From the IMG/VR virus record IMGVR_UViG_3300033146_005596, positions 62,001 to 126,000 of that record: a stretch of 64,000 nt of DNA, one strand, 5' to 3'. Positions 17,178-40,867 of the stretch are shown here, piece after piece. Source of the DNA: a virus. Position 1 is the stretch's first letter; each line of letters begins with the position of its first letter. The translations under genes and the position numbers were made by a program. The notes beneath the pieces were generated by a model. The model was not told the origin of the DNA. It was given only the letters and a program-made list of their open reading frames with translations, and did not search any database.

Positions 17178-18260
17178 TCATTTATTATCTTTTTCTTTTT
17201 TATTAAACCAAATCTCATAGCTTCTACTTTTAATCTTAGCTGATATATCTGGAGAGCTATACCCCCTTATTACAATACCTTCTCGCTTTACTTTACTATT
17301 CAATAAAGAAGTACCTTCAGAATACTCCAGTAGCTCCTTGACTGAGTTTCCAAGCTTGGAAAGGCTAGTACACTCTTTTAATATTGGTACATAAGATAAT
17401 CCTGTTTCTAAAAAAAAGCTGGTCATTTTCTCAAAGCCCAAATCCTTTTCTGTATCTAAGTTCCTAACATTATACACAAAAAAAGCTAATATATCAAGAT
17501 TATAAATATTTTTCTGAATACCAGGCCCAACAATCTCACCTTGGACCGCAATATTAAAACCGTGCTTTTTTTTATATTTTTTTAACACCTTGTTTAGTTG
17601 GTACTGTTCAGCTACTCGGTACCAGTTATTACTCTTGTCTAACCTCCGTGTATTATGGCTAAAAACTTTAAACTTCTTACCTTCTAAGGAGTAAGCGGCC
17701 GCTTGACCTTCCAACTTTTCAGTAACAGAAAAAAGTATATTTTCCTTTTTGAGTCTATCATAACAAACCTGAATATTAGTCTCGCCGCTTTTTTTAATAT
17801 TAGCTGGATAGGCAAAATCAATAGGGCCTATGAGTTTTATTCTCAATTTCTGGAAAAAGTTTAATTTAGTAGTGTCCGTTTGTGCAGTCTTTTGCTCATA
17901 TCTTTTAATTTCTAAAATATCAGCAACTTTTAAGCCTTCAACTCTATTCTTAGCAAGAAGAGTTTTAGGTAAAATGTCTAAGCTGAATACAATTCCTTGA
18001 GAAAATAATCCTCGCATTTTCATATTCCGAATCCTAAAACCTTTTACTCGACTGTTATAGCACCTCGACCTTAAGAACTCAAACTTAGGCTTTTCTGGTA
18101 ATACTGTATCATATTCAATATAAACACACAGGTCCCCAGCTTTGAAATCATCTTTTTTTACAATGACATCCCAGCCAAGAACATGTGCTAATTCGATATT
18201 ATCACAGCCTTTAATTGGCTCTATACTTTTAATCTTTTGAATGCTTGCTAAATCTCGCAT
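17178..18260 (-). CDS. ATP-dependent RNA ligase, Rnl5 (DraRnl)-like
   Basis: 360 residues. An N-terminal OB-like domain (about 1-110, with YIEYDTVLPEKP) precedes a nucleotidyltransferase domain. The adenylated lysine is in EKLEG (K182, motif I), with SHNTRR (about 203) as motif Ia/III region, VQGEIVGPG (about 248) as motif III/IV and EGIVIRG followed by KIKS (about 330-345) as motifs IV/V. This order matches Deinococcus-type RNA ligases, which seal nicked RNA. It starts after AAGGGGAG. Nearby are RtcB, a phosphoesterase and tRNA genes, suggesting repair of cleaved tRNA. Confidence 0.8.
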   Translation of the reverse strand: MRDLASIQKIKSIEPIKGCDNIELAHVLGWDVIVKKDDFKAGDLCVYIEYDTVLPEKPKFEFLRSRCYNSRVKGFRIRNMKMRGLFSQGIVFSLDILPKTLLAKNRVEGLKVADILEIKRYEQKTAQTDTTKLNFFQKLRIKLIGPIDFAYPANIKKSGETNIQVCYDRLKKENILFSVTEKLEGQAAAYSLEGKKFKVFSHNTRRLDKSNNWYRVAEQYQLNKVLKKYKKKHGFNIAVQGEIVGPGIQKNIYNLDILAFFVYNVRNLDTEKDLGFEKMTSFFLETGLSYVPILKECTSLSKLGNSVKELLEYSEGTSLLNSKVKREGIVIRGYSSPDISAKIKSRSYEIWFNKKEKDNK

Positions 18261-19054: not shown

Positions 19055-20185
19055 CTACCCCTTTATATTATAAACAGATTTCCAGATTTCAATATCTGAT
19101 ATATTACCAGATAGTTCTTTAATCACAATATCAGCGTCTTTGTAAGCCCTAGGACTTTCATCTAGCCTCTTCTCATCTATACAAGAGCTCCAAATGTCTT
19201 TAGTATCCTCCTTAAACTCTTCCATTGCTAGTGTCTTTTTAGCTTGTGTTCTTGAGAAATTACGGCCAAGCCCATGAGGAGCTGAACTGTTCCAATCAGT
19301 TTTTCCTCTTCCATACCCAACCAAAACACCTAAACCCATATTTAAAGGTATAATAACCTTTTCTAGCTTATGAGCAGATATAGCCCCCTTCCTAAGTATA
19401 TTATCCTCAAAATCAATATAATTATGAACTGATGAAAAAGTCTGCATTCCATTCCTATTAAAAAACTCAAATATAATAGTAGAATAAATCAAGGACCGAC
19501 TAGTCTCTGCATACTCTTGAGCTATTTTCATGTGGTCAAAATATTTCTTAGCAGCTTTTCCATCTAAGTACTCTAAGCCTTTTTCTGCGTCTTTACAAGT
19601 ATCCTCTGCTATTTTCTGGTGATAATCACAAATGTCTTTTCCAAACTTTCTAGAGCCAGTATGAACCACTAGGTAATGCTCATTGTTTTTATCTTTAACA
19701 ATTTCAATAAAGTGATTACCACCTCCCAGGGTACCAATAGAGTTCTTGTACCTTTTTATGGAGTCTTCTTGACCTATTTCTTTAGCTACTTTTTCTATTT
19801 TCTTTAACAGACCCACTAAATTATTTCTTTCAAGAACTTTATCCAGATTTTGATGTATGTTAAATCCAACTGGAGTCCTTTCTCTTATAAACTTGTCAAG
19901 CCTTTCAAAAGTTGTTGCATCCAAGTTGTTCAAACCATCAATAGACGTACAAGAAACGCCACAGCCAATGTCTACACCAATTAAATTTGGTATTACTTTT
20001 GAGCCCAACTCCATTGTTAACCCAATAGGACCAGCAGCTCCAAAGTGGTTATCTGGCATTATTCTAACTTTCTTACCTTTTGAAACAGGAGAAACCATAA
20101 TAGATTTAACTTGTTCTGCTACGTTATCAGGTACTTCATTACAAAATATTTTAGCGGTACCGAATTTTCCTTTTATTTCTTCCAT
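19055..20185 (-). CDS. rtcB: RtcB-type tRNA-splicing RNA ligase
   Basis: 376 residues, slightly shorter than host RtcB. Landmarks: IMPDNHFG (about 43), GVDIGCGV (70-77; D72 and C75 as Mn ligands), GGGNHFIEIV (about 155), VVHTGSRKFG (about 174), and SAPHGLGRNFSR (about 304), which contains the His that is guanylylated. RtcB joins 2',3'-cyclic phosphate or 3'-phosphate RNA to 5'-OH RNA with GTP. Those are exactly the ends left by anticodon nucleases, and the gene is beside the phage tRNA cluster. Confidence 0.9.
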   Translation of the reverse strand: MEEIKGKFGTAKIFCNEVPDNVAEQVKSIMVSPVSKGKKVRIMPDNHFGAAGPIGLTMELGSKVIPNLIGVDIGCGVSCTSIDGLNNLDATTFERLDKFIRERTPVGFNIHQNLDKVLERNNLVGLLKKIEKVAKEIGQEDSIKRYKNSIGTLGGGNHFIEIVKDKNNEHYLVVHTGSRKFGKDICDYHQKIAEDTCKDAEKGLEYLDGKAAKKYFDHMKIAQEYAETSRSLIYSTIIFEFFNRNGMQTFSSVHNYIDFEDNILRKGAISAHKLEKVIIPLNMGLGVLVGYGRGKTDWNSSAPHGLGRNFSRTQAKKTLAMEEFKEDTKDIWSSCIDEKRLDESPRAYKDADIVIKELSGNISDIEIWKSVYNIKG

Positions 20186-23401: not shown

Positions 23402-24010
23402 TTAATCCTCCCAAAGTTTCTGGTAGGTATAACAAGTTGTTGCATTAAAGTTGATACTACCTGCTGAGGTAGAAAACTCCATGTCGTACTCTTCTCCATT
23501 AAGCTCAAAAGTGATATATAATTCAGCCGCACTAATATCTATGTAGTTTTCAGGAGTTAAATCTGAATGAATAAAGCCTTCTCCATACATAGTGGGGTCT
23601 ACTGAGTTGACATCAGCTAAGTATAATGTATTTCTAACTTCTTCTTCAAAGTCTTCAACCTTACCACTAGCCTCATCAATAAGCCAATACATAGCTGGGC
23701 TATTCATTGCATCTTTTAACAACTGGTCTTGGTCAAAAGTTAAAGTTCCTTTTACCTCCTCATCAGTTTGAACGTCACTGGTTGACATTACAGCGTAGTA
23801 GGATTCAAATATAACTTCCCCTGTAATATTAAACTCAAAATCACTTTGCTGAGACTGGGTAAACTCTGCATTGTTCAGACTAATACTTACACCAGAACCA
23901 CTGCCTTCTTGGACTCTAGCTTTACTTTTAACAGAAATGAAATCTCCAGACTCCACTATAATATTAGTCCCCGGAATTCTAAATTCATTTCTTGCTTGTA
24001 TTCTGTTCAT
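23402..24010 (-). CDS. Beta-rich hypothetical protein with IPGTNIIVES motif
   Basis: 202 residues, acidic, mostly beta, ending in a Cys/Tyr-containing strand. Residues 12-21 read IPGTNIIVES, which recurs exactly in the small frameshifted gene at 44253. It has its own family B motif (24023-24050) and lies just downstream of the terminase. A virion-assembly role is possible from context only. Confidence 0.5.
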   Translation of the reverse strand: MNRIQARNEFRIPGTNIIVESGDFISVKSKARVQEGSGSGVSISLNNAEFTQSQQSDFEFNITGEVIFESYYAVMSTSDVQTDEEVKGTLTFDQDQLLKDAMNSPAMYWLIDEASGKVEDFEEEVRNTLYLADVNSVDPTMYGEGFIHSDLTPENYIDISAAELYITFELNGEEYDMEFSTSAGSINFNATTCYTYQKLWED

Positions 24011-24022
24011 AATTAAAATGTT

Positions 24023-24050
24023 TCTCCTTTGTTAATTATATAATAAGTAC
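24023..24050 (-). promoter_or_regulatory. Family B upstream motif
   Basis: Read on the - strand: ACTTATTATATAATTAAC followed by AAAGGAG, before 24010. Confidence 0.45.
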
Positions 24051-24066
24051 CATCAAAAAAAAACAG

Positions 24067-25434
24067 TTAAAAAGTTAAGCCCAAATTTTTTAATGATTTA
24101 TTCAAGTCTTCTTTTCTCTGTTTTTCAGAGACTACGATTCTATCTGGGTTCCAGACTTCAGTTGGGCCATAAGGAAAAACTTGATTCAATAGCTCTAGTA
24201 CTGCTGTTGTTGCATCTGAAACGTCCTTTGCATTTATGCCACATCTTTCTTTTTCCCAAGCGTTCTCTCCACCTCCATACGACATAGTTGGGCCACTTGA
24301 GTGGTCAATTTTAGTAGTTCCTGTTCTTTTTCTTTTTGCATATTCCAGAGTCTTTAGCTCGTTTTTAAAATAGCAATTCCTTCCTGATTTAACACGGCCA
24401 GTTGTTATATAAGATAATAAATTGAGGTACGGTCCTACTTCTTTATCTACTGATAACTTTCTTGTATCTATCTCAATAGAGTTCAAATACTGTATCAGAC
24501 TTTCTGACTGGAAATTATCAAAACTTACTGCTTCCAAGTGTATATTGCCCAAATGTACAAGGTCTTTTATAAAGAATTTAATAGCATCTAGTGATATTCT
24601 ACCACCAAGCGGGGATACAACAATTTGCATATCAACAACAAATATTGGCTCATTTTTTATACGGTCTAACTCTAAATGGCCCATTGCTAATCCAAGATTA
24701 TCGCCAGTTAATGCTAAGTCAACTGCTAAGCACCTAGGAATATGAGGCTTGTAATAAAAGCTATATCGTGCTAGATTATACTCAAAGAATATATCTTTAA
24801 TCTGGTCCCAAATACAATGAGTTGGGTCTTCTTTAACACTAGCAAATATATGTCCTTCTATACTCCTAAACTCCGTCATAAAAATGTTATCAATTAGTCT
24901 ATGGTCCATTATAAACCTTGATTTTTGTCCAGAGGGGATTCCAGATATATCTTTAAGTGACTTCAACAAGTCATCTATATAATATTGCTTTTTCTCTTTT
25001 GGTACCCACTCCAAATCAGTTGGGCTGTACTGGTCAACTTCGTGCTCTGGTACAATCTGAGGCGGCCGCCCTTTTCCGCCTTTAAAAACAGGAAATCTAT
25101 CATCTGGATTTTCATAGTCCTCTGGGCGCCAGTCATACTCAGCACCTTTAATAATTAAGTTCTTAGGATTTTTATGGGCTTCTTGCAGGATATATTTATC
25201 AATTGGACTTTCAATATCATTAGGTGAAGAATCCAAAATAGTACGGCCCCAGTAATTACCTCTAAGTCTTGACTCAATTCTTCCTTTAGCATCATTGTAT
25301 AACCGCATAACAAACTCAGGGCTATTATGAGTTATTATGTTATCATTTACAATAAATAAGCCATCATCAGCCCCTACAGTTATACACCTTTGTGGTTTTT
25401 TTCCGACTTTTTTTATACTTACTATTTTAGGCAT
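24067..25434 (-). CDS. terL: Large terminase C-terminal part, preceded by an intein C-fragment
   Basis: 455 residues. Residues 1-37 are an intein C-terminal half: RCITV (block F, C17) and NIITHN (block G, T-H-N), with S38 as +1. Residues 38 onward continue the terminase: TILDSSPND (ATPase motif III, about 66-74), then the RNase H-like nuclease with LAVDLALTGDN (D239), SFDNFQS (D306) and AKDVSDATTA (about 425). The start overlaps the endonuclease stop by 8 bases and uses GGAGAGA inside that gene. Trans-splicing with 27371-28930 would restore full TerL. Confidence 0.85.
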   Translation of the reverse strand: MPKIVSIKKVGKKPQRCITVGADDGLFIVNDNIITHNSPEFVMRLYNDAKGRIESRLRGNYWGRTILDSSPNDIESPIDKYILQEAHKNPKNLIIKGAEYDWRPEDYENPDDRFPVFKGGKGRPPQIVPEHEVDQYSPTDLEWVPKEKKQYYIDDLLKSLKDISGIPSGQKSRFIMDHRLIDNIFMTEFRSIEGHIFASVKEDPTHCIWDQIKDIFFEYNLARYSFYYKPHIPRCLAVDLALTGDNLGLAMGHLELDRIKNEPIFVVDMQIVVSPLGGRISLDAIKFFIKDLVHLGNIHLEAVSFDNFQSESLIQYLNSIEIDTRKLSVDKEVGPYLNLLSYITTGRVKSGRNCYFKNELKTLEYAKRKRTGTTKIDHSSGPTMSYGGGENAWEKERCGINAKDVSDATTAVLELLNQVFPYGPTEVWNPDRIVVSEKQRKEDLNKSLKNLGLTF

Positions 25435-27322
25435 CTTGTCTCTCCTTTACAAAAACTTTCATACCACAATCAAATATTCTGTTATAATTATTTGCAATCA
25501 TGTTTTCAACTTCTGTTTTTGACTCATCAAAATTAAATCCCTCTATATTTTTTAATTTATGCTTCTGAAATTGCTGCCTTGATTTTAGAATAAGAGAATC
25601 TTTAAAATAGTAATAATTTGGTGAGCTTATTCTTTCTAAGGAAAATCCTAGTTTTTCATAGCTGGTACCACCAAACCATCTATAATCACAATAAGATATT
25701 ATATTTCCTTTATACCTATTTTCAAAATGTTTTAATAACTTTGCTTTTCCACCTAAAACATGAACTCCCTGTTTTTCACAAAACCTAAGCAATTCATAGT
25801 TATACTTTTTATTAAACCTTGATTTTCCAAAGGACATTACACTAACAAGTTCAGTTCCTTGGTATAGCCCTAGTTTTATAGACGCAGCGATATATCCTTG
25901 TAAATGATTTTCTTCTAAAAATAGTTTATATTCTTTATTTCCTACTTCCCTAATATCAGTCTTCCTTCCTCCTATTTTTTTTGATTTTCCAAGCAAGCTA
26001 GAAAGGGTTGCTAAAACTAATTTTTTATTATTTATATACTCATTTTCCCATATATGTATAATTCTAATTCCTTTTTTTTCTGCAAGTTTAGTCTTGTCTA
26101 TATGATACTTTTTTCCTTTCATTAGCTCAGAATGCCAATAAATACCATCATACTCTATTCCTAAATTAAGTTCTGGAATAAAAATGTCTATTTCCTTACC
26201 ATCTAAATATTTACGGCTGTTTAATACAGTTTTATACCCTAGAGCTTTTATATAACTGTTTATTTCAATCTCTGCTCTCGAAGCATGCTTTTGAATAGGA
26301 AAGCATTTTTGACATTGAGCTTTGTGTATATGACTAGGTGGGTAGATTAAAGGTGTTATCTCACCACACTTAGTACATTCAGTAAAAAAAGTATCATCTT
26401 TATAGATAAACTTTAAAGAGTATTTTGAAAAATCAAGATTTTTGAACTTCTCTAAATTTTCTAAATGATGCCTCTTTTGTCTCTTCATTTTTATTGTGTC
26501 TGTACTCCATAGGGCTTTATAGCCTCCATACTTTTTATCCACAGTTGCTTTAGCTTTATCTCCAGCTCCCTTTAACTGATGAGGGTTTATAACCCCGTAC
26601 CTTTCTTTTAATGTTTCCTGATAATGCCTCAAGCCCTCTTCTGACTGCATAAAATGTTCTGTACCATACTTTTTAAGAAAAGTATCTCTTGACTTCAAGT
26701 TACGTTTTTTATAAAAATCAGGTTTAGATTCTATTGTCTTTTTAGCTTTAGTTTTAACTACCTCTGATTGAGTTGCATACTCAGTCCCATACTTCTTTAA
26801 GTTTGTTTCTCTACTTTTTTTCTTAAACCTTTCAAGTTGAAGAGCACTCTCTACGCCATATTTTTCAAGCATAGTCTTTTTTTGATTTATTAAAACATAG
26901 CTATAGTAATCTTCCATTGTTCCATATTTTTCTACTATAGTAGCTCGTCTTTTAGCTTCACGTTTTTCAAACCATAAAGGGTCTTTATTTATTGTTATTT
27001 TACTTTTTATATCTCTTTGATTTTTCCAGTTTTCCATAGTACCATAGTGTTCTAGAATAGTTTTTTTCCATATTTCTTTTCTATCTTTTCCCCAGTCTGG
27101 ATTATTTTTAATAGTCTTATTCCTTTTCAGTTGCTTTTGCTTTTCAGCTTCTTCTAAAGACCCATATTTTTCGAGCCTTGCTTTCTTAGCTCTATCCATA
27201 ACTATTTTAGAACAGGAAGTACACCTAGCATTAGACAACCTTTTGTAATCAGTATAGGACTCAAAAGGTTTTTTACACATACCACAAATAACAGTTCTTG
27301 ATTCTTTTAGTTTCTTACTCAT
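25427..27322 (-). CDS. Vsr-like (EDxHD-type) homing endonuclease between split-intein genes
   Basis: 631 residues. An N-terminal zinc knuckle (C13, C16, C34, C37) leads into about ten KYG(T/S/V)-type DNA-binding repeats (about 50-265). A second zinc knuckle follows (C316, C319, C337, C340), then a Vsr-like nuclease with SRAEIEINSYI, GKEIDIFIPELNLGIEYDGIYWHSE and IRIIHIWENEY (about 347-430). The C-terminal ~190 residues are a conserved extra domain with FGKSRFNKKYNYELLRFC. This layout matches endonucleases found inside fractured split-intein genes. It begins after a family C motif. Confidence 0.8.
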   Translation of the reverse strand: MSKKLKESRTVICGMCKKPFESYTDYKRLSNARCTSCSKIVMDRAKKARLEKYGSLEEAEKQKQLKRNKTIKNNPDWGKDRKEIWKKTILEHYGTMENWKNQRDIKSKITINKDPLWFEKREAKRRATIVEKYGTMEDYYSYVLINQKKTMLEKYGVESALQLERFKKKSRETNLKKYGTEYATQSEVVKTKAKKTIESKPDFYKKRNLKSRDTFLKKYGTEHFMQSEEGLRHYQETLKERYGVINPHQLKGAGDKAKATVDKKYGGYKALWSTDTIKMKRQKRHHLENLEKFKNLDFSKYSLKFIYKDDTFFTECTKCGEITPLIYPPSHIHKAQCQKCFPIQKHASRAEIEINSYIKALGYKTVLNSRKYLDGKEIDIFIPELNLGIEYDGIYWHSELMKGKKYHIDKTKLAEKKGIRIIHIWENEYINNKKLVLATLSSLLGKSKKIGGRKTDIREVGNKEYKLFLEENHLQGYIAASIKLGLYQGTELVSVMSFGKSRFNKKYNYELLRFCEKQGVHVLGGKAKLLKHFENRYKGNIISYCDYRWFGGTSYEKLGFSLERISSPNYYYFKDSLILKSRQQFQKHKLKNIEGFNFDESKTEVENMIANNYNRIFDCGMKVFVKERQDA

Positions 27323-27325
27323 ATA

Positions 27326-27333
27326 TAATTAGT
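27326..27333 (-). promoter_or_regulatory. Family C upstream motif
   Basis: ACTAATTA on the - strand, a few bases before the endonuclease ATG at 27322. It may let this gene be expressed apart from terL. Confidence 0.4.
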
Positions 27334-27370
27334 TCACTTACATTTTTAGGTATAAACTTGACGACTAAGA

Positions 27371-28930
27371 CTATGAGAGCTCTGGAATACTGAAACTATA
27401 CGTGTCCATGTTTTCTAAAATAAACCTAGTTGTTTTTACTTCTTGTAGACTTTTTCCATTTTTAGTATAATTAACAAGCCATAAATGTTCTAAGTTACAT
27501 TCAACTTTTTTTCCATTATCAAAAGTTATTTCATAGGCATCGTCAGTTCCCTCATAGGGTATACCTACTACAGGTGTAGTACCTAAAAAAGGATGAGTTA
27601 TAGTATCCCCAAGTTTCAAGGCCCCTATTGGGACTTTGCCTTGTGGAGTTTCAACCAAAGTCTCAAGAACCAGAGCTTTTCCTGCATCAAGGAAAAAGCT
27701 GATTTCACTGAGTACAATGCTGGCAAAGTTTATTCCTAATAATTTGCTAGGGTTAGTGACTATTTTTATATTAGCACCATTAGAGAAAGATAGCGCTGAG
27801 GAAGGAGCAGCTGTTGTCCAGTAAATTCTATTATCTCCTTTAGTGCCTTTATCATTTTTCCATTCAAAATCAAGTTTTCTCATTTTGTCCGCTGTCCGTA
27901 CCCTTTCAAAATATGGTGACTGCGCTAAAATATTAAGGAACGGCTCTAGTAATAGCTCTGAGGTTTTTTCAATGGAGTATGAAATAAAACCTTGTGCAAT
28001 TATTGAAGCTGGTGATAAACCAAAATATTCTTTTGAATCTCGCATTAAAGATAAATGGGTAGTTATGTACAAAGTTATTAGGGTAGAAAGATATGAATTA
28101 TGAGTTATTATATTATTTTCTAATACATATAGCCCCTCTTCTGAGTCAAGTGTGATACATTTTTGTTCTACAGGCGGAAGCTTTTTAATTCCTTTTAGTT
28201 TTACTTTACCCTTATAGTCTCCATTTTCTTGACCTATATCTGATGGAAATAAATAATGCAAATCTGGATTTTCAAGTATAAACTTAGTTTCTACATTTTC
28301 CCATGCTCTATAGCTATAAGACACTCTCCAGATGTGGTTAAGCCCACACTGTGCTGTTCTACTATCAGCAAACTCGAGTTCATATACATCTTTTTTACCT
28401 TGAGGGTGTTCAGCAATTACTTTAGCTGTACCTCCATTTGGGGTTACAACTGTATCTCCTACAGTTAATTCACCCATTGTTTTTATTCCTGTTGGTATTT
28501 TAATTCTAGTATCTACTGGTTGTTCTTTACCAAAGCCTATGTGGGGATATAAAATTAAGTCCCTATACTCTGCACTATTGCTAAAAAATAGCTTAAATAT
28601 ATCTTTTATTCTTGGGTATGTACTCAAGATAGCTCTTCCTAAGTACTTCTCAGTTAAAAACTCCTCAGGTGTTGGTGGTTTACTTGTATATAGTATCTTC
28701 CAGCTATTCTGTACCAAATACGATTTCTGTACTTCATTCAATTCAGGGTTATTTAATAGGTAGTCTAGTGCTAATTGTACCTTCTCATTATTACCGTTTA
28801 ATTTTTCTATAAAAGTAGGGTGCTCAGCAGCTTGTGCATCTCCCATTATTACATCAGTTAATAAGGAGGATAGCTCGTTCAATTCTTTCATTGAGTAAAT
28901 TGTATTATTTTTTATATTTAAATCAACCAT
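27371..28930 (-). CDS. terL: Large terminase ATPase part with one whole and one half class 3 intein
   Basis: 519 residues. Terminase residues 1-135 end in HIGFGK; residues 136-278 are a complete mini-intein (W201, C258, THN at 276-278); S279 restores Walker A as GFGKS. Terminase then runs to K418, with Walker B around VLSEISFF (406-413). Residues 419-519 are an intein N-half (starts ALVLETLVETPQG, block B HLW at 482-484). Both inteins start with a non-nucleophile (E136, A419) and carry the class 3 W-C-T set. The C-half is in 24067-25434. Confidence 0.88.
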   Translation of the reverse strand: MVDLNIKNNTIYSMKELNELSSLLTDVIMGDAQAAEHPTFIEKLNGNNEKVQLALDYLLNNPELNEVQKSYLVQNSWKILYTSKPPTPEEFLTEKYLGRAILSTYPRIKDIFKLFFSNSAEYRDLILYPHIGFGKEQPVDTRIKIPTGIKTMGELTVGDTVVTPNGGTAKVIAEHPQGKKDVYELEFADSRTAQCGLNHIWRVSYSYRAWENVETKFILENPDLHYLFPSDIGQENGDYKGKVKLKGIKKLPPVEQKCITLDSEEGLYVLENNIITHNSYLSTLITLYITTHLSLMRDSKEYFGLSPASIIAQGFISYSIEKTSELLLEPFLNILAQSPYFERVRTADKMRKLDFEWKNDKGTKGDNRIYWTTAAPSSALSFSNGANIKIVTNPSKLLGINFASIVLSEISFFLDAGKALVLETLVETPQGKVPIGALKLGDTITHPFLGTTPVVGIPYEGTDDAYEITFDNGKKVECNLEHLWLVNYTKNGKSLQEVKTTRFILENMDTYSFSIPELS

Positions 28931-28946
28931 ATACTAATAAGTTCTT

Positions 28947-28975
28947 GTTGGTACCGGGCTTAAACTGGTACCAAC
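28947..28975. promoter_or_regulatory. Dyad of GTTGGTACC in a divergent promoter region
   Basis: GTTGGTACC, 11 bases, then its exact complement, in the 54-base gap between divergent terL and the RecU-like gene. The arms could bind a dimeric regulator or form a hairpin. Confidence 0.5.
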
Positions 28976-28984
28976 TTATTAAAC

Positions 28985-29458
28985 ATGAAAGAAGCTGAAG
29001 TTAATAACATTATTAGAAAGAGTTTAGACTGGGGTTATAAAATTCCAGATGATGGAAGTTCAATGTCAATGGGTATAAAAAGACCTTTTGATGTATTTGG
29101 TATTATAGACGGGAGACCTATCTATATAGAATCCAAAGCTATGAATAAAATGCAGAGTTTTAATCTTGGTAAAATACGAGACCACCAAATAAAAAGCCTA
29201 GTGGATATTAAGAAATTAAATCCAGATGCAATTTGTGGTATAGCTCTATCAGTTAATTGTGGACGTGCAAAGCATAGACTCTATCTTTGGACTGATGTTG
29301 AAGAAATTGCAAGACGTCGAGATAATAAAGAAAACTTTAAAAAAACTGAATTAGAAACTCTGGAAAACTATGTACTACGCAAAAAAACCACCTGCATAAA
29401 TGGAGATGGTTACACAGTTAGCTGTCATAAATATGACATCAAAAGCTTAATTAGCTAA
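28985..29458 (+). CDS. RecU/Hjc-like Holliday junction resolvase
   Basis: 157 residues. It follows the PD-(D/E)xK plan of RecU: a helical start, KRPFDVFGIIDGRPIYIESKA (D about 36, E and K about 49-51) and FNLGKIRDHQIKSL, the helix typical of RecU/penicillin-binding-factor proteins. Such enzymes resolve branched DNA before packaging. It is divergent from terL and overlaps the end of a convergent gene by 12 bases. Confidence 0.75.
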   Translation: MKEAEVNNIIRKSLDWGYKIPDDGSSMSMGIKRPFDVFGIIDGRPIYIESKAMNKMQSFNLGKIRDHQIKSLVDIKKLNPDAICGIALSVNCGRAKHRLYLWTDVEEIARRRDNKENFKKTELETLENYVLRKKTTCINGDGYTVSCHKYDIKSLIS

Positions 29459-30991
29459 ATCATAATATTTCTGAAAAGCCAAGAGCTTAGCTTTGTGCTT
29501 ATCAACTTCTTGCTCTATTTTATTCAAGCGTCTATCTAAGAAAGATTCTTGCTGAACAGACTTTTCTTCTTGGGCCTCTTCTGAGCTTACCTGTGGCTCT
29601 TTCGCTTTTTCAGGATTTTGCTCTACCTGCTCTGTATCGTCAGTTGGCTCCTCAGAAGCTTTTCCAGTTCTAAACTCTTCAATAACCCTTTTATTTATAG
29701 GTAAGACCTCATTTATTGCTTCTTTAGAGAACTCTGAGCTTTTAGACCGGATTAAGACTTGTCCTGCTTCTAGCATTTTTCCATTGTACTCAAATGAAAA
29801 TTGTACCAGTCTTGGGTCCAAGCCATATAACTCTTTTGAGCTATCAAACTTGGAATATAACTTTAAAATTTCGTTTCTGTTATCTATCTTTTCATTACCA
29901 AACTTTGTACAAATAGCTACTGTAAAGAAAGTGCTTAGCTCATAGCCTTCTCCTTCTCTTAAAATAAGACTTCGTGAGTTCCCGTGTAAATCAAAGGTGA
30001 TTGTTTCAGTATTAGTAGTATTGTTCAATAAGCGAACTAGTGCTGCTAAAAAAGATGAGTTTTTAGTTGATATGTCCTTCATATACTCATCAATGAACTC
30101 TGGTATCAACTTAATAGGTGTGGCTGCTAATTCAGTTGTTTTATCCTTATCATTAAAATCATAGCCTCCATCACCTTCTTGCATACCTAGAAAACTCAAG
30201 CCTGTTATATGAGATATTACTTTACTTAATGATTTCTGCATATAATAGTCTTTTAATAAAAAGCTATGAATTGATTTTCTTGCGGACTCTTTTGCTTTAT
30301 AGCTAATTGCTAATGCGTTAAACTGTTGCTCTCTTGAAGCTGCTGCTCTTGTAAATGAAAATATATACTGGAGGATTGATTCCTTAAAACCTTCCTCTTT
30401 TTGTTCATCATTAGCTTGTGGTAAGAAATACATCTCAACTAGAGGTCCATGCCCAAACTTAATTGCATCTGTCAATAGCAGGTCATATATTTTAAATGAT
30501 TTTTGGTTAGTGCTTTGAGTTTCTTTTTGTTCTGGCTGCTCATCAGCTTCTTGTACTTTGGTACCATTGTTTCTTTGTGCTTTTTCAGCATTGGCCTTTG
30601 CTTTTTTCCTATTTTCTGGGTCTGAAAGCAAAGGATTTATTTTAAATTTACCATTTTTATATTCTGTGTGTACTTTTTGAAAAGTCCCTATATTTAGCTG
30701 TTGAGTGTCTGTTTGAGACAAGGCTTTTTTATAAATCTCACTTAGGATATATAATCTTATTCCTACATCTGCATCGTTTTTTAAATTCAGAGGGTCATCA
30801 TTAGTGGATAGTTTTTTCCAGGCGTCCATTAACTCTTTATATAAAGTCAAAAAATCACCATCATAACCATGCAAAGCAGCAACGGCACCAATTATTTCCT
30901 TAAAGCTTACTATAGAGCCTTTGGGAATACTGATGCCATTAACTGTGGTTGTTCTTTCTAAATAAATACATCTTTCTACAAATCTTTTCAT
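29447..30991 (-). CDS. Large hypothetical protein with charged linkers
   Basis: 514 residues. A helical N-terminal domain (1-130) and a Lys/Gln/Glu-rich linker (about 135-165) are followed by a long helical-beta core. A Glu-rich linker (about 440-480) and a C-terminal coiled coil (LDRRLNKIEQEVDKHKAK) complete it. A family C motif is upstream. It is one of three consecutive unknown or sigma genes leading to terL. No function assigned. Confidence 0.5.
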   Translation of the reverse strand: MKRFVERCIYLERTTTVNGISIPKGSIVSFKEIIGAVAALHGYDGDFLTLYKELMDAWKKLSTNDDPLNLKNDADVGIRLYILSEIYKKALSQTDTQQLNIGTFQKVHTEYKNGKFKINPLLSDPENRKKAKANAEKAQRNNGTKVQEADEQPEQKETQSTNQKSFKIYDLLLTDAIKFGHGPLVEMYFLPQANDEQKEEGFKESILQYIFSFTRAAASREQQFNALAISYKAKESARKSIHSFLLKDYYMQKSLSKVISHITGLSFLGMQEGDGGYDFNDKDKTTELAATPIKLIPEFIDEYMKDISTKNSSFLAALVRLLNNTTNTETITFDLHGNSRSLILREGEGYELSTFFTVAICTKFGNEKIDNRNEILKLYSKFDSSKELYGLDPRLVQFSFEYNGKMLEAGQVLIRSKSSEFSKEAINEVLPINKRVIEEFRTGKASEEPTDDTEQVEQNPEKAKEPQVSSEEAQEEKSVQQESFLDRRLNKIEQEVDKHKAKLLAFQKYYDLAN

Positions 30992-34232: not shown

Positions 34233-36254
34233 ATGAATTTTGGTGTAAACACAGGTATTAGTAAAAAGCAGATTAACAATGTTACAAGCAAAAGTAATGT
34301 TCTGTATGATAATTTAAGTGATAATGGGATTATTATATATTGTGATTATTTCTATAATAAACATGAGCTAAAAATAATCAGAAGTTTCATGACAGCTTCT
34401 GAAGTGGAAAATTATGCTGTAGTTGTAGCTAGTGTTTTGGATTTTAATCCAGATGATAATTTAACAGCAGGTAAAATAAAAACATATAGAAACTCAAGGT
34501 ATAAGCTTGATGGCTATTTTAAAAAGTTCAGAGGCCTTAGGATTATAACAGTAGGAGCAGCACTATATACTATTTCACCAGACTTAATGATTAAAGGGTT
34601 CACAAATATTGGATTCACTAACTCATATTTTTATGCTTCTGAGTTTAAGTGCAATGTATACCCCTCATTTGGTTTTTATGATTTTATAGGCTCAACAGTT
34701 TTAAAAAGCTCAAGAGCTCCTTATGCAAAAACTTGGAAATTAAACTTTTTTTATTACCAAGTAAAGATGGCAAAAGAACAGCAGTTGTATAGAAGGGAGT
34801 TAAAACCTATTATTCAGACAGTTAATAGCAAAGAGGATTATATAAAAATAATACAAAATGAGATTGATAGAGGTACTGAGTATGTTGCTTGGGATTTAGA
34901 GACTTCTGGGTTTGACTTCAGGACTGATAAGCTTGGTTGTATAACTCTTTCATTTGATGGTACTATTGGCTATTTTGTTGAGTCAAAGTATATAGACAAG
35001 GAAGTCACAAGTCTTATGTTTGACTGTATGAAACAAATTGGTGCTAACCTAAAGTTTGACTATAAGTTCATGAAAGAACAGATGGGAGTTGATTCAGTAC
35101 GTGTTGATGATGATATTATTCAGTTGGGTCATGTGTTAAACGAGATTAGAAACAAAGGTTTGAAATCAGTTGCTTGGGAATATACAAATTTTGGGGGCTA
35201 TGATTCAGGTCTTGATGACTATGTTGAAAAAACTAAAACTAAAAATTACCTAAAGATTCCAACAGATATATTAAAAGAGTATGCAACAATGGATGCTATT
35301 ATAACATATCGAATTTTTATGGAAATGAAAAAGCAATGTGAAATGTTAGACCGAAAATATAGAAATAAATATGCAGAGTCTTGGACTATGTGGAGATACT
35401 ATCACGAGATTATGATGCCTGCTGTAAATACATTTGCTAGTGCTGAATATCATGGTATTGTTATTGATAAGGAAGAACTTGATAAGTCTGCTATAGCTAT
35501 GAAAAACTTGTTGAATGAAAGTCTTGATGCTATATCTACAAAGATTGGAATACCAAAATCAGATATTGGCTCACCTACTAAGCTTGGAAAATTTTTAGAA
35601 AAAGCTGGCTGGGAAAATCTTGGTACCAATAAAAGGGGTATTTACCAAACAGGGGATGAGCAATTAGCTGCTTGGGCAACTATTTATAAAAGAGATGGTG
35701 CTGCTGAGCTTAGAGAGTATCGCTCTAGAGAAACAGCTTATAATATGTTCATTGGTAGTGATGAAGATGGTAAAGGCTGGAGAAAGTTTCTAAAGTTTAA
35801 TAAAAATGTTAATGAGTATACAGTACACCCAACTTATGCACTAATGCTAGCAAACTCTGGAAGAGGAAAATGCTCAAGACCAAATTTCCAACAAGGAATG
35901 AGTGGTTCTCCTTATGCTAAATATCAAAAAAGAATAATCTCAGTACCTAAGAATATGAAGATGATGAGTATTGACTATTCTGGCTTGCAGCTAAGAATTG
36001 CAGGTATTTTAGGAAAAGAGAAAAGTGTTGTTGATTTGTTCTCAGACCCAAAAGTAAAAAGAACCGCGGATATACATTCTAGAACTGGGTTTCAGGTATT
36101 TGCTTCTAATAAAACATTTAATGTTACTGAGTATCATGTAACTGATGAAAAGGGTTTACGCTATACTCTGTTATCTGAACAAACAGTAGAGACACAAAGA
36201 GGACGTGTTAAAGCTAAAGATTTAAAAGAAACAGATACAATTAAAAGTATTTAA
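34233..36254 (+). CDS. Family A DNA polymerase, N-terminal part ending in an intein-like segment
   Basis: 673 residues. A 3'-5' exonuclease domain has all three motifs: WDLETSG (D221, E223), NLKFD (272-276) and YATMD (350-354). The polymerase domain begins normally and has motif A, MSIDYSGLQLR (D581), and ADIHSRTGF (612-620). Motifs B and C are missing. From about 626 the sequence resembles intein block B (YHVTDEKG, then SEQTVETQRGRVKAKDL) and stops at 673. I see no other gene here with motifs B or C. Either a partner elsewhere supplies them by trans-splicing or the gene is broken. Confidence 0.8.
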   Translation: MNFGVNTGISKKQINNVTSKSNVLYDNLSDNGIIIYCDYFYNKHELKIIRSFMTASEVENYAVVVASVLDFNPDDNLTAGKIKTYRNSRYKLDGYFKKFRGLRIITVGAALYTISPDLMIKGFTNIGFTNSYFYASEFKCNVYPSFGFYDFIGSTVLKSSRAPYAKTWKLNFFYYQVKMAKEQQLYRRELKPIIQTVNSKEDYIKIIQNEIDRGTEYVAWDLETSGFDFRTDKLGCITLSFDGTIGYFVESKYIDKEVTSLMFDCMKQIGANLKFDYKFMKEQMGVDSVRVDDDIIQLGHVLNEIRNKGLKSVAWEYTNFGGYDSGLDDYVEKTKTKNYLKIPTDILKEYATMDAIITYRIFMEMKKQCEMLDRKYRNKYAESWTMWRYYHEIMMPAVNTFASAEYHGIVIDKEELDKSAIAMKNLLNESLDAISTKIGIPKSDIGSPTKLGKFLEKAGWENLGTNKRGIYQTGDEQLAAWATIYKRDGAAELREYRSRETAYNMFIGSDEDGKGWRKFLKFNKNVNEYTVHPTYALMLANSGRGKCSRPNFQQGMSGSPYAKYQKRIISVPKNMKMMSIDYSGLQLRIAGILGKEKSVVDLFSDPKVKRTADIHSRTGFQVFASNKTFNVTEYHVTDEKGLRYTLLSEQTVETQRGRVKAKDLKETDTIKSI

Positions 36255-38719: not shown

Positions 38720-40867
38720 TTAGGACTTGTTTACATCTTCAAAATCCCAGCGTTCAAATAGCTCCCGACGAGCGTCATTCCAGCTGCTAATAGGCGTCAT
38801 GAAACCTACAGTTCTGGACATTTGTTCTACAACCTTACTACTGCATATAGGACATATCTTATTATTACCTATTGTAGTATGGCCTGACATACATGTTGAG
38901 TAGACCGCGTTTAGTGCAAAGAACTCAGCCCCAGACTTTATAGAATAGTTAATAATCTTTTTATAAACCTCTGGCCTAGCAATCTCAGAAAGGTTAACTG
39001 AAGTTATCCCTCCACCTGTTAGTAATTTGTCATATTTTCCTGTAACATCCATTCTCTTCCAGATAGAGGATTCCACATCCTGTGGAACGAATTGATTAGC
39101 ATATAAGCTCTGTGGTACTAGCTTATTTCCATATAAAAGTCTATCTACTTTTGCTAGTTTAGCCGCCATAGACTCAGCTGGGATTTGTTCTATATTAAAA
39201 GCATTGTTAAGTTCAATTGACTTTTCAGTAGCAATTTTATTTATAATTTTTAATGCCTCAAAAACATAATCTGTATCAGTGTTAAACTTTTCTTGTAAGT
39301 TTTCATTCATCTCATAATAGCCAGATAGCCCAATAGTACTAAACATTTTGCTCATCGTAATCCAGCCAGCTTCAAAAAATACATCTGGGTTTTTCTTAAG
39401 AATATCCTTGATGAGCTCTCTATGAGAGATTAAAATCTTAGTAGCATCAACAGTTCTTTCTGCAAGTCTAGCATAAAAGTCTTCTTCAGACTCAGACTCT
39501 AGCGCAAGTCTATTAAGATTCAAAGTTGCTACTCTATGAGACCCTAAAGATATTGCGGTACCACCAAAACTATTTACCTGATTACCAAGTTCTAGCATTT
39601 CTGGAATAGAACTTAAACGACAACAGCTAGATACCTTGGTACCTTCACTAGTCATTACATTATAGCGGAATACATCTCGGTTCTGAGTGAAGGACTCTAA
39701 AAAATCTTGGTCAGGAATAGAAATATTTTCAGTTGATTCTACTTTAGAAATATGTTTCTGACCAACTAAAGCTGATTTTTTTATATCTTCATTTTCTAAG
39801 TCCTTAAGCTTGACTAAAGTTTCCTCATTTCCTACAGTTATAGAAATATGGTCTACCGAAAGGCCCTCTTTCTTAGAGCCGTCTTCCATTGTTAAAATTG
39901 TTTTCTTCTCAACTAACTTAGAAATATTAGCTGTTACTACTGGAAATCTATAAGGTGCTCCATCTTTCAGTGGGTCTCCCTTATCAAAGAAATCCATAAA
40001 ATTTTCTTGGAGTTCTAAAATATAATCAATTACATAATCAATAGATATATCTTGCCCATTAACTTGTCCTTTAAAATACCACTCTAAGTTATCTGGTCCA
40101 AGTAGTGAGGCTAACTTCGGCCTATCAAATATAGATAAGTTTGTGAAGGGAGACTCATTCGAGCTTCTACTTAGGTGATTGACTGAGTGAACAAAATTTT
40201 GAAAATTGTTGGTAATATATTTCTTAAGCTTATCACTATTTGTATAGTCTTTTAAAGTAACTTCCTCTCGATAAATCAAAATATGAGCTATGTCCATAAA
40301 AAAGGTACCAACAGCAATAGCTCCAGCTAAAGAGTTTGACATTTGATGAACTGTCTCATTTAATGCAGAAATATAGCTTACTACTCGCTTGGGTGGTTTT
40401 GATTGTAACTGGCCAAATGGTCTACCTTCCAATACTATTTTGGAAGCGTCAAAACTCCAACAATATGGTTTTAGTATATTTGATGAATCTGAGAGAGCTA
40501 TTGACAAGTCGTACATTTCAGCAGCTAATCTTTTTGCTTCTTTCTTGCCGTACATATCTCTTAGTTTTCTGTATAAAAATCTATACCCAATGATTTTGTT
40601 TATTGGAATTGCAATCTCGTTTCCAAGTGAGGTGATTGTAGAATTAGCCTTGTTTGCATTTTGGTCAAAACTTGCATCTGCTAAGCCCTTCTCAATTAAG
40701 TTTTCGAAGTTAGCTACAAAGTCTAAGTTATGTTTTGCCAGTCCATGTATATCTAATATTTTTGTTGCTATGGTACTATCTTTTATACCATACTTTTTGT
40801 CTAGAGAGTATTCTAAACCTGATTTGATTCGTTTCTGAGACGCTAAAACGCCCGAATTTTCAAACAT
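38720..40867 (-). CDS. nrdD: Anaerobic ribonucleoside-triphosphate reductase
   Basis: 715 residues. The C-terminal part has the family's cysteine pairs (CMSGH, then CPIC, about 664-682) and the glycyl-radical segment SRTVGFMTPISSWND (about 690-704). VSSCCRL (about 416) supplies candidate active-site Cys, and GHTTIGNNKICP binds zinc. NrdD reduces ribonucleotides to deoxyribonucleotides without oxygen. It has an AAGGAG and a family C motif upstream and lies opposite in strand to nrdG. Confidence 0.88.
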   Translation of the reverse strand: MFENSGVLASQKRIKSGLEYSLDKKYGIKDSTIATKILDIHGLAKHNLDFVANFENLIEKGLADASFDQNANKANSTITSLGNEIAIPINKIIGYRFLYRKLRDMYGKKEAKRLAAEMYDLSIALSDSSNILKPYCWSFDASKIVLEGRPFGQLQSKPPKRVVSYISALNETVHQMSNSLAGAIAVGTFFMDIAHILIYREEVTLKDYTNSDKLKKYITNNFQNFVHSVNHLSRSSNESPFTNLSIFDRPKLASLLGPDNLEWYFKGQVNGQDISIDYVIDYILELQENFMDFFDKGDPLKDGAPYRFPVVTANISKLVEKKTILTMEDGSKKEGLSVDHISITVGNEETLVKLKDLENEDIKKSALVGQKHISKVESTENISIPDQDFLESFTQNRDVFRYNVMTSEGTKVSSCCRLSSIPEMLELGNQVNSFGGTAISLGSHRVATLNLNRLALESESEEDFYARLAERTVDATKILISHRELIKDILKKNPDVFFEAGWITMSKMFSTIGLSGYYEMNENLQEKFNTDTDYVFEALKIINKIATEKSIELNNAFNIEQIPAESMAAKLAKVDRLLYGNKLVPQSLYANQFVPQDVESSIWKRMDVTGKYDKLLTGGGITSVNLSEIARPEVYKKIINYSIKSGAEFFALNAVYSTCMSGHTTIGNNKICPICSSKVVEQMSRTVGFMTPISSWNDARRELFERWDFEDVNKS

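What the first reader, a model, noticed from the sequence alone, without database searches (positions are those of the whole stretch)
24067..28930. Terminase gene fractured by a split intein with a Vsr-like endonuclease gene between the halves
Seen: the upstream terminase piece ends in a 101-residue intein N-half after ...LDAGK; the downstream piece starts with a 37-residue intein C-half ending ITHN, then S and the rest of TerL including DSSPND. The endonuclease gene sits between them on the same strand. This is the 'fractured gene' layout described for split inteins with Vsr-like homing endonucleases. TerL would need trans-splicing to work.
Basis: partly seen in the sequence, partly recalled or inferred. 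Interest (0 to 1): 0.88.

Follow-up and report, generated by a model that had tools for sequence, protein, structure and literature searches.

The report
Phage packaging gene split by intein
In this uncultured virus the gene for the DNA-packaging motor is broken in two by a DNA-cutting gene, and the two protein halves carry the two parts of a rare self-splicing element (a 'class 3' split intein) that should glue them back together; relatives show that this happened repeatedly in the same gene family, whereas only one such natural split element had been reported before.

Summary
Confirmed and extended. On the minus strand of a 126.6-kb virus contig, TerL lies in two ORFs: 28930-27371 (135-aa extein, 143-aa cis mini-intein inside Walker A, 140-aa extein, 101-aa IntN) and 25434-24067 (37-aa IntC, 418-aa extein). 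Between them, same strand, is a 631-aa endonuclease gene. The joined exteins (693 aa) align with intact TerLs without gap or duplication, and no second terL exists on the contig. The nuclease domain's model matches I-Bth0305I and Vsr best. A 2020 survey found no split form among 1701 class 3 inteins and reported one exception, AceL NrdHF, with a deviant MCT triplet. In about 79 IMG/VR relatives I found eight more contigs with TerL broken at one or two of five sites: same site and Vsr-like gene (L024), inverted Vsr-like gene (L166), other endonuclease kinds, one TerL in three pieces (L142). The seven canonically split inteins plus two cis mini-inteins form a supported clade (97/94); LAGLIDADG inteins at site B in other relatives are a different lineage (AU p=0.003). 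Splicing and homing are inferred, not shown.

The parts
27371..28930 (-). TerL N-terminal gene (519 aa): extein 1 + cis mini-intein + extein 2 + IntN
   Evidence: ORF, translation; aligns with intact TerLs
28097..28525 (-). Cis class 3 mini-intein (143 aa, E1...THN|S) in Walker A GFGK|S, site A (K135|S136 of the joined TerL)
   Evidence: Intein profile; same site holds LAGLIDADG cis inteins in L022 and L140 and is empty in most relatives
27374..27676 (-). IntN of the split class 3 intein (101 aa, A1, H64, W66) at site B (K275|S276)
25427..27322 (-). Endonuclease gene (631 aa): CxxC and KYG-repeat region, Vsr/EDxHD-like nuclease (about 348-445), Mom/GNAT-like C-terminal domain (about 453-626)
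   Evidence: PHROG 3339 homing endonuclease E=5e-119; DUF7487 and MTES_1575; AlphaFold models and Foldseek
25967..26317 (-). Nuclease domain (residues 336-452); conserved E351, E377xD379, E390, H397, K410
   Evidence: Alignment of 39-40 relatives; best structural matches 3r3p and 1vsr
24067..25434 (-). TerL C-terminal gene (455 aa): IntC + extein 3 (C-motif and nuclease domain)
25324..25434 (-). IntC (37 aa; C17 = class 3 branch-point Cys, T35-H36-N37)
   Evidence: own ribosome-binding site
24070..25323 (-). TerL extein 3 (S276-F693 of the joined TerL), LDSSPND at 305, nuclease Asp 477, 544, 645
   Evidence: Alignments

Best explanation
The terL gene is a 'fractured gene'. A class 3 intein at K275|S276, between Walker B and the C-motif of the ATPase, is split at the canonical endonuclease position into a 101-aa IntN and a 37-aa IntC made from separate genes; a free-standing Vsr/EDxHD-type endonuclease gene lies between them. 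Inferred mechanism: IntN and IntC bind and fold; Cys17 of IntC (class 3 branch point, with His64 and Trp66 of IntN and Thr35 of IntC) attacks the K275-Ala1 bond, the N-extein passes to Ser276, Asn37 cyclises, and a 693-aa TerL results. The cis mini-intein in Walker A must also leave, so no complete ATPase centre exists until both have spliced. The endonuclease probably cut intein-less terL alleles and spread the cassette by homing (inferred). Shown: anatomy, signatures, seamless exteins, one terL copy, same layout in a relative, recurrence at other sites. Inferred: splicing, homing.
For: Exact anatomy. Joined exteins align over 88% with intact phage TerLs (about 26% identity, E down to 9e-24) and at 33-43% identity with IMG/VR relatives, with no gap or duplication at either junction; Walker A K/S, catalytic E266, DSSP and nuclease D477/D544/D645 are kept. 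Single terL on the contig. Class 3 signature complete in both inteins: residue 1 = A or E, H-x-W, Cys in block F, Thr of THN, S+1. Closest solved structures are inteins, first gp41-1 with a grafted WCT (6riz, E=9e-11). L024 repeats the layout at the same site; IntC 65%, IntN 36%, endonuclease 36%, exteins 40-48% identical. Nuclease model: best PDB matches I-Bth0305I and Vsr.
Against: No expression, splicing or cleavage data. The endonuclease target is unknown. The Walker B Asp is Ser here, but Ser/Thr in all close relatives compared, so this is not decay. The nuclease-domain Foldseek E-values are modest (1e-3 to 3e-3).
Confidence: 0.88

Rival explanations
1. The gene is rejoined at RNA level: the interruption is a group I or II intron carrying an endonuclease, as in ICP1 terL.
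For: Intron-split terL with endonuclease genes is real in ICP1 (PMC10448857); phage introns carry Vsr-like endonucleases (PMC12350094).
Against: Both extein ends run in frame into recognisable intein halves with all catalytic residues; no group I/II match in 23500-29500; in L166 the endonuclease is on the opposite strand while the intein halves are kept.
Confidence: 0.03
2. terL is dead here (defective phage), or an intact copy lies on DNA missing from the contig.
For: The record may be a fragment.
Against: Catalytic residues and open frames are kept on both sides, IntC has its own ribosome-binding site, and L024 keeps the same layout at 40-48% extein identity, so it is old and maintained.
Confidence: 0.05
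3. The halves work as separate, unligated subunits (ATPase and nuclease).
For: TerL has two domains, and some proteins tolerate splitting.
Against: The break is inside the ATPase domain (after residue 275, between Walker B at 262 and the C-motif at 305), not at the domain border; IntN and IntC keep complete splicing residues.
Confidence: 0.02
4. The split-intein anatomy is right, but the endonuclease is a passenger with no part in mobility.
For: Its nearest relatives in IMG/VR are not beside class 3 intein halves; in L142 site E and L131 it is absent or a remnant; kinds differ between sites.
Against: Endonuclease genes sit exactly between intein halves in window, L024, L128, L141 and L166.
Confidence: 0.25

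Closest known systems
Fractured genes with split inteins and Vsr-like endonucleases (Dassa et al. 2009, NAR 37:2560; not held, known via citing papers)
   Same: Host gene in two pieces, IntN and IntC at the break, free-standing Vsr-like endonuclease gene between
   Different: The intein is class 3 with a full WCT; the same gene carries a second (cis) class 3 intein; fractures recur at five sites of one gene family
AceL NrdHF, the first naturally split class 3 intein (PMC7891396)
   Same: Fractured gene in a phage-like contig, Ala1, branch Cys on IntC, +1 Ser, similar split (98+48 against 101+37 aa)
   Different: AceL has MCT, lacks the two conserved C-terminal histidines and has a GIY-YIG gene; here WCT and THN are canonical, the host is TerL and the nuclease is EDxHD/Vsr-like
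gp41-1 split intein and its engineered WCT version (6qaz, 6riz; PMC7664689)
   Same: Closest solved sequences; similar size and split type
   Different: gp41-1 is class 1; the engineered WCT version did not splice productively; this one is natural class 3
I-Bth0305I / Vsr (3r3p, 1vsr)
   Same: Best structural matches of the nuclease domain; modular DNA-binding region in front
   Different: Extra C-terminal domain whose best matches are phage Mu Mom and GNATs
GOS-TerL and AceL-TerL split inteins (named in PMC7090010, PMC11766414)
   Same: Split inteins in TerL
   Different: From my own knowledge these are class 1, and AceL-TerL has a very short IntN; not compared here

Membership tests
Class 3 intein | No Cys/Ser/Thr nucleophile at residue 1 | tested here: met
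   A1 (split), E1 (cis)
Class 3 intein | Trp N3:12 - Cys C2:4 - Thr C1:5 triplet, block B His, C-terminal HN, nucleophile +1 | tested here: met
   EHLW, RCITV, ITHN|S; HIW, KCITL, ITHN|S; motif definition from PMC7891396
Class 3 intein | Internal Cys forms the first branched thioester | not testable with these tools
   Needs Cys mutants and thiol cleavage assay
Naturally split intein / fractured gene | Host gene in two ORFs, each carrying one intein half at the break | tested here: met
   repeated in L024
Naturally split intein / fractured gene | Joined exteins give one intact host protein; no other copy | tested here: met
Naturally split intein / fractured gene | Endonuclease gene between the halves | tested here: met
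   27322-25427
Naturally split intein / fractured gene | Protein trans-splicing | not testable with these tools
EDxHD/Vsr-like homing endonuclease | Vsr-like nuclease fold | tested here: met
   Top Foldseek hits 3r3p (E=1.1e-3, TM 0.58/0.66) and 1vsr (E=3.2e-3)
EDxHD/Vsr-like homing endonuclease | EDxHD active-site residues in register | tested here: inconclusive
   D379, E390, H397 invariant in 40 sequences; E351, E377 nearly so; not superposed on 3r3p residue by residue
EDxHD/Vsr-like homing endonuclease | Cleaves the intein-less allele and homes | not testable with these tools
   Needs purified enzyme and allele substrates
Terminase large subunit | Walker A, catalytic Glu, RNase-H-like nuclease Asp triad in the joined product | tested here: met
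   GxGKS 132-136, E266, D477, D544, D645; Walker B Asp is Ser/Thr in the close relatives too

The most novel reading that the evidence does not exclude
This TerL family hosts one lineage of naturally split class 3 inteins (plus HEN-less cis mini-inteins) that has colonised at least four insertion sites of one gene, picking up or swapping unrelated endonuclease genes (Vsr/EDxHD, even inverted; NUMOD3 protein; another DUF7487-repeat protein), independently of the LAGLIDADG class 3 inteins that occupy the same sites in relatives. In one phage TerL is made as three polypeptides. The split intein, not the endonuclease, would then be the stable unit.
Probability: 0.6. Interest if true: 0.8.

Novelty: new variant of a known kind. 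Interest (0 to 1): 0.74.

Why it matters
In 2020 a survey of 1701 class 3 inteins found none split, and one deviant example was described from a metagenome (PMC7891396); full-text searches of open papers up to 2026 showed no further natural one. Here is a set of seven canonically split class 3 inteins with complete WCT signatures, in one gene family with empty-site, cis-LAGLIDADG, cis-mini and split states side by side. That makes testable how class 3 inteins become split and move, whether endonucleases are interchangeable, and, by comparison with gp41-1 whose grafted WCT fails to splice (PMC7664689), what class 3 chemistry needs besides WCT. Because both splicing nucleophiles are on the short C-terminal side, they are also candidates for protein-ligation tools.

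Tried and rejected
RNA intron: Rfam over 23500-29500 found only one match, far below threshold, to a plastid element. Second terL: none. Walker B Ser as a sign of decay: rejected, shared with relatives. Site B split intein as a broken descendant of the site B LAGLIDADG intein: one clade rejected, AU p=0.003. Window's split and cis inteins as each other's closest kin (local duplication): not the best tree, but not rejected (AU p=0.27). gp41-1 inside the split class 3 clade: weakly disfavoured (AU p=0.042), but its branch is long (1.98), so no conclusion on class 1/class 3 origin. Single-protein scans with the joined TerL and with the C-half found no relatives; alignments did. GTDB genome contigs: none, so no host assigned. 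INPHARED hits examined (H33, H58, H62, H64) all carry the match inside one long ORF, so no isolated phage with a split class 3 intein was found. Missing middle of the DNA polymerase intein: not found; no polA N-half relatives. L128's interruption after IntC looked like a group I intron, but Rfam gives nothing.

Full report
WHAT IS THERE. The window is bases 62001-126000 of a 126,585-bp virus record. On the minus strand three genes follow each other: 28930-27371 (519 aa), 27322-25427 (631 aa), 25434-24067 (455 aa). The first carries TerL residues 1-135, a 143-aa cis intein, TerL residues 136-275 and a 101-aa IntN; the third a 37-aa IntC and TerL residues 276-693. The endonuclease stop overlaps the IntC start by 8 nt, and a ribosome-binding site (AAAGGAG) lies just before that start.

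THE EXTEINS. Joined, they give a 693-aa TerL that aligns over 88% of its length with intact phage TerLs at about 26% identity and at 33-43% with closer IMG/VR relatives. Neither junction shows a gap or a duplicated stretch. Walker A (GFGK|S), the catalytic Glu, the DSSP motif and the three nuclease Asp are kept. The Walker B Asp is Ser here, but Ser or Thr in all the close relatives compared. tblastn of four TerLs finds no other copy on the contig. Site B (K275|S276) lies inside the ATPase domain, so the unligated halves could hardly form an ATPase; site A is in the P-loop itself.

THE INTEINS ARE CLASS 3. Both have no nucleophile at residue 1 (A1, E1), a block-B His followed by x-Trp, a Cys in block F, and THN before Ser+1, the class 3 definition in PMC7891396. 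That paper found no split member among 1701 class 3 inteins and described one from a metagenome, AceL NrdHF, with MCT in place of WCT and without the conserved C-terminal histidines, in a fractured gene with a GIY-YIG endonuclease. A 2025 review still names only this one as a class 3 split intein. The best PDB match of the window's split intein is gp41-1 with a grafted WCT (6riz, E=9e-11), ahead of wild-type gp41-1 (7.6e-8) and mycobacterial DnaB inteins (0.024); that graft did not splice productively (PMC7664689).

THE ENDONUCLEASE. PHROG 3339 homing endonuclease (E=5e-119), with DUF7487 repeats and a weak MTES_1575 match. AlphaFold models have pLDDT 83 and 84: for the nuclease domain alone the two best PDB matches are I-Bth0305I and Vsr. 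For the whole protein the best matches are phage Mu Mom and GNAT acetyltransferases, pointing to a C-terminal Mom/GNAT-like domain. PMC12350094 describes a broad outgroup of EDxHD/Vsr endonucleases with repeated small domains in phages, which this resembles. Of its 80 best relatives in IMG/VR none was found between separate class 3 intein halves: it is mostly a free-standing gene.

RELATIVES. Alignment-based scans gave about 79 distinct IMG/VR contigs of this TerL family, near-duplicates included. Most are uninterrupted. Six have cis inteins only: both sites A and B in L022/L136, L137 and L140, with LAGLIDADG-type inteins; site A in L135, L157 and L144 (mini). Eight besides the window are fractured: L024 site B with a Vsr-like gene; L128 site C (L162|S163) with another DUF7487-repeat gene; L131 site D (I257|N258) with an 84-aa remnant; L166 site D with a Vsr-like gene on the opposite strand; L141 site E (S234|S235) with a NUMOD3 protein; L142 at A and E, so TerL comes as three ORFs; L146 and L218 at A. 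At A in L142, L146 and L218 the break is atypical: the TerL N-part runs straight into an HNH protein, and the second piece carries nearly the whole intein; whether these splice is open.

HISTORY. In a tree of 26 inteins the seven canonically split ones and the two cis mini-inteins (window A, L144 A) form a supported clade (97/94), and the two site-B split inteins pair (92/85). Holding split and LAGLIDADG site-B inteins together is rejected (AU p=0.003); so is holding all site-A cis inteins together (p=0.008). So the same codons were colonised more than once, and the HEN-less/split lineage spread to several sites. Whether it was split once or several times, and whether the window's cis intein is a rejoined form, is not resolved. 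Window and L024 cassettes differ about as much as their exteins (IntN 36%, endonuclease 36%, exteins 40-48%; IntC 65%), so the fracture is old, not a fresh transfer.

MECHANISM. Inferred from class 3 chemistry (PMC7891396): assembly of IntN and IntC; attack of IntC Cys17 on the K275-A1 bond; transfer to Ser276; Asn37 cyclisation; acyl shift. Both nucleophiles are on the C-terminal precursor. With the Walker A intein also to be removed, packaging activity would appear only after two splicing events. Homing by the endonuclease is plausible, but untested.

VERDICT. Observation confirmed, interpretation supported. By layout it is a known kind (fractured gene); by chemistry it is a new variant, a canonical-WCT split class 3 intein, with several relatives found here. 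Literature coverage is limited to open-access papers, so a subscription-only report of the same cannot be excluded.

Noticed in passing
window 34233-36254(+) and L013:14559-15380(-) (outside the window, about 81 kb away, opposite strand): A second split gene: family A DNA polymerase. The N-half ends ...GLRY|TLLSEQTVETQRGRVKAKDLKETDTIKSI* (29-aa block-A-like IntN), the C-half begins with 43 aa ending GYLTHN|CNFGLLFGAQ. Relatives L133 and L199 have both parts contiguous. The middle of the intein was not found, so it is either a third piece elsewhere or dead.
   Followed up: partly
window 25427-25966(-): The endonuclease has a C-terminal Mom/GNAT-like domain (best Foldseek match phage Mu Mom 8bv8, E=2.8e-5; Pfam Mom E=0.037), unusual for a homing endonuclease; perhaps DNA modification or just DNA binding.
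   Followed up: partly
L142:5148-9690: TerL apparently made as three polypeptides, broken at sites A and E; the site A piece is fused to an HNH protein.
   Followed up: partly
L128:6700-6998: Six codons after the IntC/extein junction (THN|SPATVK) the frame stops, and about 300 nt of non-coding sequence precede the rest of TerL: intron-like, but no Rfam match.
   Followed up: partly
L164:249-1127: Two class 3 mini-inteins in one TerL-like protein, separated by only three extein residues (TGK) of the Walker A motif.
   Followed up: no
L138:5395-6225: A second, shorter TerL-like ORF directly downstream of an intact terL.
   Followed up: no
L003:4001-4426 (MT835601.1): Class 3 mini-intein in the P-loop of an SbcC-like ATPase of a human-gut phage contig.
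   Followed up: no
window 38720-40867(-): NrdD-like anaerobic ribonucleotide reductase, suggesting an anaerobic host.
   Followed up: no
window 17178-18260(-) and 19055-20185(-): RNA ligase and RtcB-type tRNA splicing ligase genes close together.
   Followed up: no
L303:1382-4362 (Shigella phage ESh36): Helicase/primase gene of an isolated T4-like phage in two pieces; the first ends in a gp41-1-like class 1 IntN, followed by a 332-aa ORF.
   Followed up: partly
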